A stretch of 64,000 bases of DNA, from positions 921,126-985,125 of the forward strand of contig NZ_AP028634.1 of assembly GCF_033097485.1 (NCBI RefSeq). The letters are read 5' to 3'. Made by a program: the position numbers and the translations under genes. The stretch is from Pyrofollis japonicus. Its GTDB lineage: Archaea > Thermoproteota > Thermoprotei_A > Sulfolobales > Pyrodictiaceae. Each line of letters opens with the position of its first letter. Positions within the stretch are counted from its first letter, which is position 1. The notes beneath the pieces are model-generated. The model did not search any database. It was given only the letters and a program-made list of their open reading frames with translations, and was not told the origin of the DNA. Positions 40,671-45,415 of the stretch are shown here, one piece after another.

Positions 40671-43592
40671 TTGTTCGAGATAGCGCAGAAATGGCAAAAA
40701 GCTTGGAGAGAATCTAGGATATTTGAAGCAGATCCCCGTGAAGACAAACCAAAGTTCTTCCTTACTGCAGCATTCCCGTATCCAAACAGCCCGCTACACC
40801 TGGGACACGGAAGGACCTATACTATTACCGACGCGTATGCACGCTACCTTAGAATGAAAGGATACAACGTATTATTCCCGATGGGATTTCACTATACTGG
40901 AACACCGATACTGACAATGGCAGAGCAGATAGCAAGTGGCGACAAGGAGTTAATAGATCTAATGATAAACGTCTATGATGTGCCTCCGGAAGATATTGAG
41001 AAGCTGAAAGACCCCCTGTCGCTAGCTCGCTACTTTCACACAGACGCAAAAAACGCAATGATGGAAATGGGTTACAGTATTGACTGGAGAAGAGAATTTA
41101 CTAGCATAGATCCCGAATTCAAGAAATTCATTACATGGCAGTTTATAAAGCTACGAGAGAAAGGCCTCGTAACTAAGGGAACGCATCCTGTCGGCTGGTG
41201 CCCGAAGCATGGCATGCCAGTAGGAATGCATGATACCAAAGGTGACGTTGAACCGGAAATCGGCGAGTTTACTCTAATACTGTTCAAGCTAAGTGATTTC
41301 GACTACTATCTTCCGGCAGCTACACTGAGGCCGGAAACGGTCTTCGGCGTTACAAATATCTGGGTTAACCCGGATGCCGAGTACAGCCTAGTAATAATTG
41401 ATGGCAAGAAATATATTGTTAGCAAGAGGGCGGCATTTAAGCTAAGATTCCAGCGAGACAACGTTGCTGAAACAAAGACGCTCAAAGGAAGCGAACTCGT
41501 AGGCAAATGGGTAATCAATCCAGCAACAGGTGAAAAGGTTCCAATACTACCTGCCAGCTTCGTTGACCCTGACACTGCGACTGGTGTGGTAATGAGTGTT
41601 CCAGCTCATGCTCCATACGACTATGTGGCTCTACGTGACTTGATTGATAATAACAGCGAGCTTCTATCAAAGCTTGGAATAGATCCGGAAAGGCTCAAGC
41701 CTATACCGCTTATAAGAGTTCCAGGATATGGTGAGATACCGGCAAAAGATATCGTTGAAAAAATGGGCATAAAGAGCCAGCTAGAAAAAGATAAGCTCGA
41801 TGAAGCAACAAAAACTCTCTATAGTGATGAGTTTAATAAAGGTATAATGAGGACTGATATTATCAATAGAGTTTACCAAGAAGTTCCGGAGGAGTATAGG
41901 AAATTCATAGTCGCTGCCCTAAAAGCCTGGATACTTGGTCGTCCGGTGCGCGAAGCCCGCGATGCAGTAGCTAAGTGGTTGACCGAACTAGGTTACGGGG
42001 ACAAAATGTATGAGATAATGAACCGCCCCGTCTATTGTCGTTGTGGCACAGAAATAGTTGTGAAAGTGCTGAAGGATCAATGGTTTATAAACTATGGCGA
42101 TCCAGCCTGGAAGCAAAGAGTGCTTGAACTGCTTAAAGAGATGCGGATTGTTCCTGAAATAATGCGGGATGAATTCATAAAAGTGGTTGACTGGCTCCGC
42201 GAAAGGGCAGCTGCAAGAACGCGTGGGCTTGGAACCGAGCTGCCCTGGGCTCCTGGATGGATCATTGAAAGTCTCAGTGACTCAACAATATACATGGCGT
42301 TCTACACGGTTATCCATAAAATAAGAAGCTACGGATTAAAAGCCGATCAACTAGCACCGAGCTTCTGGGACTATGTATTACTTGGAAAAGGCAATGTAAC
42401 AGCTGTTTCAAGGGAAACAAGCATACCCGTTGGTGTGCTTGAAGACTTGCGTCGTGAATTCGAGTACTGGTACCCGTTGGACTCAAGGCATAGTGGCAGA
42501 GACCTAGTGCCAAATCACTTGACATTCTTCCTGTTTAATCACGTAGCCATATTTCCCAGAGACAAATGGCCGCGCCAAATAGTGGTTAATGGCTTCGTGC
42601 TACTTGAAGGAAAGAAAATGAGTAAGAGCCTGCGAAACATCGTTCCACTTAGAAGAGCTCTACGCGTCTACGGTGTTGACACAGTACGTGCGACACTACT
42701 AGCAGCAGCGGAAATACTACAAGATGCAAACTTCACCGAGGAGCTTGCTCGTAGCGTTATGTCGCAACTACGCAAAATAGAGCAAATAGTTAGCGAGCTA
42801 AGAAACATAGATAGTGAAACCACGATAGCTGATAGATGGCTTGTCAGTAGATTACAAAAACACATAGAACAAGTCACCAATGCTTTCGATGGCTTAAGGA
42901 TCCGCGCAGCCACAGTAAGGGTCCTCTATGAGATGGAAAACGATGCAAAGAAGTACCTTGAGATTAGGGGCAGACCTGGCCCCGCGCTCAGAGAGTATGT
43001 TGATGCCTGGATACGGATGTTAGCACCCATAGCTCCTCATCTAGCTGAGGAACTCTGGCATAGTATTGGGAAGCAAGGCTTCGTCTCGGTAGAGTCATGG
43101 CCTCTACCCGATAGCTCTAAGATCGATGATGAGGCTGAACTCGCAGTGTCCTATGTTGACAAGGTCGTGGAGGATATAAAAGCCATATTAAGAATCTATA
43201 GAGGTGAACCGCATAAGGTAGTGTTAATCGTTGAGAAACCTGAGGCCTGGAAGTATGCCTCACTAGTGGCGTCTGTGATAATCAATAAGGGCCAGATGAG
43301 GGATGCAATAAAGGCATTAATGAATGAAGGTCTTGGAGGCAAACAGGCAGCAGCTCTAGCAAAGAAACTGTTCGAGTACATGCGGGGGCTTGATGAAGAA
43401 ACAATTAGAAGGATAGCAAGCATAAGAAGCTTCAATGAGCGGGAAGTACTGAAAACGTTTAGCGGCTACATTGCGTCAAGAATTGGAATAGAAAATGTAG
43501 AGGTAATAAGTGTTGACGAAGCAGGAGATAATGTGCCGAAACAGAAACTTGCCGCCGTAATACCGGGGAGACCAGCTATAGTAATAAGCTAG
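40671..43592 (+). CDS. leuS: Leucyl-tRNA synthetase
   Basis: Class I synthetase with 973 residues from the TTG at 40671. HIGH-type motif PNSPLHLGHGRT (about residues 38-49), the CP1 editing domain (TLRPETVFGVTNIWV, about 220-234; VVMSVPAHAPYDYVALRD) and KKMSKSLRNI (about 649) are all present. The open frame continues about 18 codons upstream without a stop and encodes a plausible IASPAALRRKPISEYAKR. AAGGTGG at 40604-40610 lies 6 nt before an in-frame ATT, so the true start may be a non-standard codon near 40617. The 3' end touches the minus-strand gene at 43589. Confidence 0.95.
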   Translation: MFEIAQKWQKAWRESRIFEADPREDKPKFFLTAAFPYPNSPLHLGHGRTYTITDAYARYLRMKGYNVLFPMGFHYTGTPILTMAEQIASGDKELIDLMINVYDVPPEDIEKLKDPLSLARYFHTDAKNAMMEMGYSIDWRREFTSIDPEFKKFITWQFIKLREKGLVTKGTHPVGWCPKHGMPVGMHDTKGDVEPEIGEFTLILFKLSDFDYYLPAATLRPETVFGVTNIWVNPDAEYSLVIIDGKKYIVSKRAAFKLRFQRDNVAETKTLKGSELVGKWVINPATGEKVPILPASFVDPDTATGVVMSVPAHAPYDYVALRDLIDNNSELLSKLGIDPERLKPIPLIRVPGYGEIPAKDIVEKMGIKSQLEKDKLDEATKTLYSDEFNKGIMRTDIINRVYQEVPEEYRKFIVAALKAWILGRPVREARDAVAKWLTELGYGDKMYEIMNRPVYCRCGTEIVVKVLKDQWFINYGDPAWKQRVLELLKEMRIVPEIMRDEFIKVVDWLRERAAARTRGLGTELPWAPGWIIESLSDSTIYMAFYTVIHKIRSYGLKADQLAPSFWDYVLLGKGNVTAVSRETSIPVGVLEDLRREFEYWYPLDSRHSGRDLVPNHLTFFLFNHVAIFPRDKWPRQIVVNGFVLLEGKKMSKSLRNIVPLRRALRVYGVDTVRATLLAAAEILQDANFTEELARSVMSQLRKIEQIVSELRNIDSETTIADRWLVSRLQKHIEQVTNAFDGLRIRAATVRVLYEMENDAKKYLEIRGRPGPALREYVDAWIRMLAPIAPHLAEELWHSIGKQGFVSVESWPLPDSSKIDDEAELAVSYVDKVVEDIKAILRIYRGEPHKVVLIVEKPEAWKYASLVASVIINKGQMRDAIKALMNEGLGGKQAAALAKKLFEYMRGLDEETIRRIASIRSFNEREVLKTFSGYIASRIGIENVEVISVDEAGDNVPKQKLAAVIPGRPAIVIS

Positions 43593-44224
43593 TATATTTC
43601 AACATATCTTCCTTTCATCTTAATGCAGCCTTTTTCGGCTAATTCGATGAGCTTGCTTCTGGCAATGGTCTTAGGTATTTTAAGATTAAGAGATACAATT
43701 TCTACGGCTTCGCGTAGCTCGATGTCGCCCGAGCCGTAATATTCATGCAGTAAATTCATAATTTCATTGCTACACGGCTCCTCTATAGGGTGAAGCAATT
43801 CAAGTCCTCTTATCTCTACATACTCTCTTCGTGGTAAAGCGTCGTGCCTGTCAACGAATTCTATAAGATAAAGATTCGCGTCAATACTGCGTGCATTTAG
43901 TCTCAATAAGCCAAGTTTACGCCAATTGCGCAGTATGGTGCCTGCAACTATAAGGATGTTTTTTGGCCTATTGTCACACCAGAGAATTATTCCTTTCTTC
44001 TCGCTATTCAGTGGACATTCGTTGCACGAATACACCCTATCTTTTTCAGCTCTATCAAGTGTTTTTTCGATAATTGTCTTAATTACTGGGCTTGCGCAGA
44101 TATAGGAGTCTTTATGAATAATGTATGCATAAAGTGATAAAGCTAAGGCAAGTCGCTGAGGAGCCTTAGGCATATATAGAGGTACTCCTTCTTCAACAAG
44201 CTTTAATACATATAGCTTATCCAA
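43589..44224 (-). CDS. Hypothetical protein with C-terminal helix-turn-helix
   Basis: Protein of 211 residues that I do not recognise. The middle carries CNECPLNSEKKGIILWC, a possible metal site. The last 65 residues (IMNLLHEYYGSGDIELREAV, LKIPKTIARSKLIELAEKG) look like a winged helix. TTG start at 44224. It is convergent with leuS, with a 4 nt overlap. Confidence 0.58.
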   Translation of the reverse strand: MDKLYVLKLVEEGVPLYMPKAPQRLALALSLYAYIIHKDSYICASPVIKTIIEKTLDRAEKDRVYSCNECPLNSEKKGIILWCDNRPKNILIVAGTILRNWRKLGLLRLNARSIDANLYLIEFVDRHDALPRREYVEIRGLELLHPIEEPCSNEIMNLLHEYYGSGDIELREAVEIVSLNLKIPKTIARSKLIELAEKGCIKMKGRYVEIY

Positions 44225-44278: not shown

Positions 44279-44337
44279 CTGGATCAGCGTAGCTCAGCCT
44301 CTTCACTATTCTGCCTCCGTTTATTCATCACATCCAG
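44279..44337 (-). ncRNA. Box C/D guide RNA, tRNA D-arm guide
   Basis: Minus strand, 59 nt. The stem CTGGA (44333-44337) pairs with TCCAG (44279-44283). Box C GTGATGA is at 44325-44331, then an 11 nt guide, D' CAGA (44310-44313), C' GTGAAGA (44300-44306), a 12 nt guide GGCTGAGCTACG and D CTGA (44284-44287). The D guide is the exact complement of CGTAGCTCAGCC, the archaeal tRNA 5'-D-arm consensus. By the D+5 rule it would direct 2'-O-methylation of G10. All elements are present, which makes this the best-supported RNA of the window. Confidence 0.8.
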
Positions 44338-44573: not shown

Positions 44574-45278
44574 TTGAGCTTACTCGTGATGTCTACATCT
44601 GATGTTCACAGTCCGCGTTATCTAATGCACTATATGTCGGCGCTCTCAAAGCATCGCGCTGACTGCGAGAAAGTAGAGCTAGTCCTATGGGCTGGTGATA
44701 TGGTTGAGAAAGGAAATGTTGCTGCACTGAAACCGGTTATTGAAGTTACAAAGAAGTTTTGCGGTAAAGCAAGGATAATCGCGGTTTTTGGCAACGAAGA
44801 ATACATGGATAGAGAAAGAGAGTTCATCACTAGATACCCGGAAATTGTGTGGCTAAATGACAACCATTATGTGTATGTATCAAGCGGTGGCGAGGAGATA
44901 GCAATCTATGGTACAAGGGGTTCCCTGGATAGACCTACAAGGTGGCAACGGCGCCATATTCCAGGCATTGAGAAAGTTTATCGTGAACGTGCTATACGTC
45001 TAAAAGAAGAAGTTCTTCGTCTTAAAAAAGAGTATGAGAAGGTAGTAGTGCTAATGCATTATGCGCCAACATACCTGACACTTGAAGGAGAAGATAAGAG
45101 TATATGGCCGGAAATGGGCAGTATTTTTATGGAAAAAGCTATAAGAGAGTCAAAACCAAATATAGTGATACATGGTCATGCCCATAACTCTAAACGGCTA
45201 GAGGTAACAATAGACAATATACTCATAGTGAATGTTGCATTTCCTGCAAGAAAAGACGTGACGATCTTGACCATATAG
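44574..45278 (+). CDS. Calcineurin-like metallophosphoesterase
   Basis: Protein of 234 residues with the five metallophosphoesterase motifs: STSDVHSP (about residue 8), LWAGDMVEKG (about 38-47), VFGNEEY (about 71-77, Glu in place of the usual His), VVLMHYAPTY (about 159-168) and VIHGHAHNSKR (about 201-211). Substrate unknown. TTG at 44574 listed; an ATG at 44589 is possible, but the protein then begins close to the first metal ligand. Confidence 0.85.
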   Translation: MSLLVMSTSDVHSPRYLMHYMSALSKHRADCEKVELVLWAGDMVEKGNVAALKPVIEVTKKFCGKARIIAVFGNEEYMDREREFITRYPEIVWLNDNHYVYVSSGGEEIAIYGTRGSLDRPTRWQRRHIPGIEKVYRERAIRLKEEVLRLKKEYEKVVVLMHYAPTYLTLEGEDKSIWPEMGSIFMEKAIRESKPNIVIHGHAHNSKRLEVTIDNILIVNVAFPARKDVTILTI

Positions 45279-45291
45279 TATTGCGCAGAAG

Positions 45292-45354
45292 AGCCGATGA
45301 TTCGTGGCCGCCTAAGCTGATCGAAATGATGAGTCTTTTACGGGTTGAGGCTCA
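45292..45354 (+). ncRNA. Box C/D guide RNA
   Basis: The stem GAGCC (45292-45296) pairs perfectly with GGCTC (45350-45354). Box C is GATGA (45297-45301), then a 16 nt guide, D' CTGA (45318-45321), a 5 nt spacer, C' ATGATGA (45327-45333, perfect), a 12 nt guide GTCTTTTACGGG and D TTGA (45346-45349). It starts 14 bp after the phosphoesterase stop, so it may be processed from that mRNA. Its 3' stem overlaps the convergent guide RNA at 45348. Confidence 0.72.
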
Positions 45355-45415
45355 GTCAGCCGCCACAACTTCATCGTATTTTACTCGCCTATGTCGGGAT
45401 GGTCATCACAGCCTC
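45348..45415 (-). ncRNA. Box C/D guide RNA, convergent with the previous one
   Basis: Minus strand. The stem GAGGC (45411-45415) pairs with GCCTC (45348-45352). Box C GTGATGA is at 45403-45409 (perfect). A degenerate D' lies near 45384-45388. C' ACGATGA is at 45371-45377 and D CTGA at 45353-45356, with a second CTGA at 45357-45360. AAATATAG at 45441-45448 (TATATTT on this strand) lies about 26 bp before the RNA start. The layout stem-T-GTGATGA is the same as in the tRNA guide at 44279. Confidence 0.7.

What the first reader, a model, noticed from the sequence alone, without database searches (positions are those of the whole stretch)
44279..44337. Guide RNA aimed at the tRNA D-arm
The D guide GGCTGAGCTACG is the exact complement of CGTAGCTCAGCC, the archaeal tRNA start of the D-arm. 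All boxes and a 5 bp stem are present. The expected target is G10, itself a known methylation spot by other enzymes.
Basis: partly seen in the sequence, partly recalled or inferred. Interest (0 to 1): 0.75.

Follow-up and report, generated by a model that had tools for sequence, protein, structure and literature searches.

The report
Guide RNA targeting tRNA position G10
A small RNA gene in a heat-loving archaeon carries a 12-letter guide that matches the start of the D-arm of many of its tRNAs and should direct a methyl group onto the ribose of position 10; the same guide is kept in dozens of related species, so it is real, but it belongs to a known kind of guide RNA.

Summary
On the minus strand at 44337-44279 lies a compact archaeal C/D box sRNA (C GTGATGA, D' CAGA, C' GTGAAGA, D CTGA, 5-bp terminal stem). 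Its 12-nt D guide pairs perfectly with positions 6-17 of 9 of the genome's 45 tRNAs and by at least 11 Watson-Crick pairs with 18. The register is always the same, and by the N+5 rule the target is G10. The locus is conserved, and mostly syntenic, across the family (Pyrodictiaceae). The bare guide-plus-D-box motif occurs once each in 58 of 214 genomes of the order (about 2.6 expected by chance, 0 reversed controls), nearly always inside C/D-like boxes. A scan of 84,980 species hit only archaea of this phylum. Some relatives carry a different guide for the second tRNA D-arm class, which also lands on G10. The genome also encodes fibrillarin and a probable Trm11, which methylates the base of G10, so the likely product is base- and ribose-methylated G10 (m2Gm/m22Gm). 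Expression and methylation are not shown. It works like, and is, a tRNA-directed C/D box sRNA: a new member of a known kind. I found no report of a G10 guide, but the key Pyrobaculum catalogue was not readable here.

The parts
44279..44337 (-). whole C/D box sRNA including the terminal stem
   Evidence: sequence; conserved in all five genomes of the genus at the same genomic place
44333..44337 (-). 5' arm of terminal stem, CTGGA
   Evidence: pairs with TCCAG; in G002-G004 the stem is GGCTGGGA/TCCCGGCC, so one pair changes on both sides
44325..44331 (-). C box GTGATGA
   Evidence: consensus RTGATGA
44314..44324 (-). D' guide ATAAACGGAGG, probably without target
   Evidence: best rRNA/tRNA match no better than shuffled guides (8-17% of shuffles reach it); not conserved in the genus
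44310..44313 (-). D' box CAGA (degenerate)
   Evidence: sequence; CGGA, CTGA or CCGA in genus members
44300..44306 (-). C' box GTGAAGA
   Evidence: sequence; followed by the usual 12-nt guide spacer
44288..44299 (-). D guide GGCTGAGCTACG, complement of tRNA positions 6-17; fifth nucleotide from the D box faces G10
   Evidence: 9 tRNAs pair 12/12, 18 with at least 11 Watson-Crick pairs; core GCTGAGCTAC kept across the order
44284..44287 (-). D box CTGA
   Evidence: sequence
44279..44283 (-). 3' arm of terminal stem, TCCAG
   Evidence: pairs with CTGGA

Best explanation
This is a C/D box methylation-guide sRNA gene. The RNA should assemble with L7Ae, Nop5 and fibrillarin. Its D guide then pairs with positions 6-17 of unfolded or nascent tRNAs of the GTAGCTCAG D-arm class (Trp, Thr, Pro-CGG, elongator Met, Lys, Ile, His, some Arg, Tyr, Phe, Asn, Ala), and fibrillarin 2'-O-methylates G10. 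The genome also encodes a probable Trm11 (N2-methylation of G10), so the expected mature nucleotide is m2Gm or m22Gm at position 10, which should stiffen the D-arm junction in a hyperthermophile. Shown: boxes, pairing register, conservation, synteny, presence of fibrillarin and a Trm11 homologue. Inferred: expression, sRNP assembly, the methylation itself, the combined nucleotide and its role.
For: Complete C/D architecture. The guide pairs with 18 of 45 tRNAs in one register, with G10 opposite the fifth guide nucleotide from the D box; the best rRNA matches are much weaker. It is conserved in all five genus genomes, found by BLAST rather than by a guide pattern: the D guide is 11/12 identical while the D' guide and flanks differ, and the downstream ORF is only about 37% identical. 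In the family, 18 of 20 genomes have the motif and 13 loci keep both LeuRS and the metallophosphatase nearby. In the order, 58 of 214 genomes have exactly one copy with 0 controls; the 13 newly read loci have C/D-like boxes, 11 of them clearly. In one search the pattern left the two bases after GTAGCTCA free, yet all 33 matches read GC, extending the tRNA complement. The scan of 84,980 species returned 30 records, all Thermoproteota-type archaea. Terminal stems exceed shuffled partners (mean 2.92 vs 2.11, sd 0.19). Relatives carry other-class guides that also hit position 10. Fibrillarin present.
Against: No expression or modification data. D' and C' boxes are degenerate. The guide would have to invade the D-stem, so it needs unfolded or pre-tRNA. 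Most conserved matches outside the genus were found with patterns that contain the guide, so guide conservation there is partly by selection. Sulfolobaceae-like genomes (f9, 31 genomes) lack it, so it is not essential across the order.
Confidence: 0.85

Rival explanations
1. The RNA is a C/D sRNP whose main job is chaperoning: pairing with the D-arm of nascent tRNAs to prevent misfolding or to time Trm11 and other enzymes, with ribose methylation minor or absent.
For: The guide covers the whole 5' strand of the D-stem (positions 10-13) and its neighbours. Trm11 is present, so G10 is already modified by a protein. The other guide appears idle.
Against: Guides for two unrelated D-arm sequences keep the same register, with position 10 exactly five nucleotides from a D/D' box. 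A chaperone would not need that register.
Confidence: 0.08
2. The match is chance, or a tRNA-gene remnant on the plus strand; there is no guide RNA.
For: The GTAGCTCAG motif is common in tRNAs, and ten window 12-mers are antisense to some tRNA.
Against: Full box set, synteny and conservation in the genus and family, one copy per genome in 58 of 214 genomes with 0 reversed controls, and no bacterial hits in a whole-collection scan.
Confidence: 0.02
3. It is a C/D sRNA whose important target is something else (rRNA or an mRNA), and the tRNA match is incidental.
For: Many archaeal sRNAs target rRNA. The D' guide of genus members (GGGAACGAACG) has a 9-bp match to 23S rRNA.
Against: The D guide has no comparable rRNA match (best scores 19 against 32 for tRNA). 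The D' guide varies freely while the D guide does not.
Confidence: 0.05

Closest known systems
Archaeal tRNA-directed C/D box sRNAs that act on many tRNAs through a conserved sequence (Pyrobaculum set of Lui et al. 2018, as described in PMC7994747; Cm56 guide of P. aerophilum, PMC7912444)
   Same: C/D box sRNA, one guide on a sequence shared by many tRNAs, the other guide without target
   Different: Target is G10 in the D-stem, not C56 or the anticodon; widespread in a different set of families. The Lui list itself was not readable here, so a G10 guide there cannot be excluded.
Pre-tRNA-Trp intron C/D guide (sR50; Cm34 and Um39)
   Same: fibrillarin-based 2'-O-methylation of tRNA
   Different: acts on one tRNA and lies in its own intron; here a free-standing gene acts on many tRNAs
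Archaeal Trm11 (Trm-G10), tRNA m2G10/m22G10 methyltransferase
   Same: modifies the same nucleotide, G10
   Different: protein enzyme acting on the base N2, not RNA-guided ribose methylation; present alongside the sRNA
Rfam sR2 (RF01139), Sulfolobus C/D sRNA
   Same: box layout and spacing, 32.2 bits
   Different: below the gathering score of 42 and a different guide; not a member

Membership tests
Archaeal C/D box sRNA | C box RTGATGA and D box CTGA near the ends | tested here: met
   GTGATGA 44331-44325 and CTGA 44287-44284
Archaeal C/D box sRNA | internal D' and C' boxes with 10-12 nt guides | tested here: met
   D' CAGA and C' GTGAAGA, both one or two changes from consensus; guides of 11 and 12 nt
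Archaeal C/D box sRNA | short terminal stem for the C/D k-turn | tested here: met
   CTGGA/TCCAG; changes on both sides of one pair in relatives
Archaeal C/D box sRNA | assembly with L7Ae, Nop5 and fibrillarin | not testable with these tools
   fibrillarin gene found at 355 bits; Nop5 and L7Ae not searched; binding needs experiment
Archaeal C/D box sRNA | expressed as a small RNA of about 50-60 nt | not testable with these tools
   no RNA data available
tRNA-directed C/D guide (G10) | at least 9-10 bp complementarity with the target nucleotide opposite position 5 from the D box | tested here: met
   12/12 in 9 tRNAs, at least 11 Watson-Crick in 18, always G10
tRNA-directed C/D guide (G10) | 2'-O-methyl present at the target in vivo | not testable with these tools
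   requires RiboMethSeq or LC-MS
Rfam sR2 | score at or above the curated gathering threshold | tested here: not met
   32.2 bits against 42

The most novel reading that the evidence does not exclude
In Pyrodictiaceae, Aeropyrum-like, Ignisphaera-like and related archaea, an RNA-guided ribose methylation and a protein base methylation are both made on G10, giving m2Gm/m22Gm at position 10 across most standard tRNAs. The ribose methyl may come first and promote Trm11, as snoRNA-guided 2'-O-methyls promote the THUMP enzyme THUMPD2 on human U6.
Probability: 0.35. Interest if true: 0.7.

Novelty: new member of a known kind. Interest (0 to 1): 0.5.

Why it matters
The positions and makers of the doubly methylated guanosines (m2Gm, m22Gm) typical of hyperthermophile tRNA are largely unknown. 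A review states that the 2'-O-methyltransferase for m22Gm26 is unknown, that Pyrodictium occultum tRNA contains m22Gm, and that its native tRNA-Met melts above 100 C against 80 C for the bare transcript (PMC6313347). A conserved G10 guide beside Trm11 gives a directly testable source for one such nucleotide. It also predicts which species have it (carriers) and which do not (the Sulfolobaceae-like group, which would include S. acidocaldarius, the best-mapped crenarchaeal tRNA set).

Tried and rejected
Rfam at gathering score found nothing here or in eight relatives. The D' guide of the window and of several relatives, tested against this genome's rRNA and tRNA, was not convincingly better than shuffles. 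The idea that the sRNA replaces a missing Trm11 was rejected: a TIGR01177/Trm11-like gene is in 213 of 214 genomes including this one, though below the strict cut-off in nearly all; the genus homologue best matches solved tRNA G10-N2 methyltransferases. Three look-alike matches (L153-L155) were rejected: their surroundings are conserved between distant genomes and read as coding, MTIKLGYAD, probably aIF2-gamma by my own recollection. A Leu/Ser-class candidate (L156) and L157 have unclear C' boxes or mismatches and were left open. Literature: no held paper reports a G10 guide; Lui 2018, Renalier 2005 and Hirata 2019 are not held.

Full report
WHAT IS THERE. Read on the minus strand, window 44337-44279 is CTGGA-T-GTGATGA-ATAAACGGAGG-CAGA-ATA-GTGAAGA-GGCTGAGCTACG-CTGA-TCCAG: stem, C box, D' guide, D' box, C' box, D guide, D box, stem. 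It lies in an intergenic stretch with no ORF of 60 aa or more over it. It starts between a divergent metallophosphatase-like gene (44574-45278, +) and a 211-aa ORF (43589-44224, -) that begins about 55 nt downstream of it in the same direction.

TARGET. I collected the 45 tRNA genes of the genome and aligned the guide to each. Nine tRNAs (Trp, Thr-GGT, Pro-CGG, Met-e, Lys-CTT, Ile, His, Arg-CCT, Arg-CCG) pair over all 12 positions and 18 have at least 11 Watson-Crick pairs. The register is always tRNA positions 6-17, so the fifth guide nucleotide from the D box faces G10. The best rRNA scores are 19 against 32 for tRNA, and shuffled guides average 23.7 with a maximum of 28. Of all window 12-mers that happen to be antisense to a tRNA (ten), only this one is followed by a D box. 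In this genome 38 of 45 tRNAs have G at position 10; the guided class GTAGCTCAG is the largest (18), followed by GTCGTCTAG (10) and GTGCCCGAG (7).

CONSERVATION. A BLAST-type search with the 111-bp region found the locus in all five genomes held of the genus. There the D guide is RGCTGAGCTACG, while the D' guide, D' box and outer flanks differ, and the stem changes on both sides of a pair. The neighbouring 211-aa ORF is only 32-38% identical, and LeuRS and the metallophosphatase are conserved on the two sides. In the family (20 genomes, 8 genera) the motif is in 18; most have clear C and C' boxes, and 13 loci keep both LeuRS and the metallophosphatase nearby. The two g5 genomes (one of Pyrolobus fumarii size) have altered D boxes, and one genome (L159) has unclear boxes. 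In the order, the bare 15-nt motif occurs exactly once in each of 58 of 214 genomes, with 0 reversed controls; random expectation is about 2.6 in total (my estimate). By family: f1 14 of 20 with the strict CTGA form, f3 17 of 48, f7 13 of 18, f8 7 of 31, f10 3 of 4, f11 2 of 3, f4 1 of 40, f6 1 of 5, f9 0 of 31, f2 and f5 0. The 13 newly read loci have C/D-like boxes, 11 of them clearly. A phylum sample found two more in one distant family. A scan of 84,980 species with a stricter pattern returned 30 records, all Thermoproteota-type archaea (Ignisphaera, Pyrodictiaceae, Acidilobaceae, Thermodiscus, Desulfurococcales and unnamed MAGs), and no bacteria, although bacterial tRNAs share the D-arm motif.

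A SECOND GUIDE FOR THE SAME POSITION. With the tRNA letters left free, I found complete C/D sRNAs in other families whose guide is for the GTCGTCTAG class: the D' guide GGCTAGACGACG in G207-G209 and the D guide TGCTAGACGACA in G129. Aligned to this genome's tRNAs as stand-ins, they again place position 10 opposite guide nucleotide five. Two different sequences converging on one nucleotide argue that the methyl group at 10, not the pairing as such, is selected.

MECHANISM. By established C/D sRNP biochemistry, the RNA binds L7Ae, Nop5 and fibrillarin and directs 2'-O-methylation five nucleotides from the D box. Fibrillarin is present. Trm11, which N2-methylates G10, is probably also present: in this genome a C-terminal part is held at one contig end (2004480-2005130), and the full-length homologue of genome G004 best matches solved tRNA (guanine(10)-N2) methyltransferases. 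The scores are below the strict NCBIfam cut-off, as in nearly all of the order. The combined product m2Gm/m22Gm10 is inference. It fits reports that m22Gm occurs in Pyrodictium occultum tRNA and that modification raises tRNA-Met melting by more than 20 C (PMC6313347). For a possible order of events, snoRNA-guided 2'-O-methyls raise N2-methylation of human U6 by THUMPD2 more than tenfold in vitro (PMC13109388); that is a parallel, not evidence here.

KNOWN OR NEW. tRNA-directed archaeal C/D sRNAs are known, including guides that act on many tRNAs through conserved sequence with the partner guide idle (PMC7994747) and the Cm56 guide of Pyrobaculum (PMC7912444). Dennis et al. noted many tRNA-complementary guides without compiling them (PMC4644070). 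Predicted tRNA targets listed for S. acidocaldarius and P. furiosus do not include 10, and m2G/m22G is what is usually found at 10 there; a tentative ribose-methylated form at 10 of one P. furiosus tRNA-Glu is reported (PMC7668247). I therefore call this a new member of a known kind, with a target position I could not find reported.

IDENTITY. The genome (2,005,174 bp, one contig) resembles Pyrofollis japonicus in size (1.99 Mb), but the name is not established. G016 (1,669,696 bp) and G015 (1,595,994 bp) match Aeropyrum pernix and A. camini sizes from my own memory. Calling f9 Sulfolobaceae is likewise inference.

Noticed in passing
window 45352-45409, minus strand: A second C/D sRNA candidate (GTGATGA ... 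CTGA, 5-bp stem). Its D guide TGTGGCGGCTGA complements 16S rRNA positions 475-486 of this genome (the conserved 530-loop sequence), an ordinary rRNA guide.
   Followed up: partly
window 43589-44224, minus strand: A 211-aa ORF just downstream of the sRNA, 32-38% identical in genus members and without a Pfam match; the sRNA may share its transcript.
   Followed up: partly
L148, L149, L150 (G207-G209): Dual-guide C/D sRNA whose D' guide GGCTAGACGACG targets G10 of the GTCGTCTAG tRNA class; its D guide ATAGTGGAAGGT has no known target.
   Followed up: partly
L077-L088 (family f7, one named member Ignisphaera): The D' guide TGGTAAAGGC next to the G10 guide is conserved across this family, but no match was found in the window genome's rRNA or tRNA; it should be tested against their own RNAs.
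   Followed up: no
L068 (G000:C1:1060840-1061000): ARAGORN labels an intron-containing tRNA as a TTA (stop) suppressor; its body is nearly identical to tRNA-Gln, so it is probably tRNA-Gln(TTG) with a misplaced intron.
   Followed up: no
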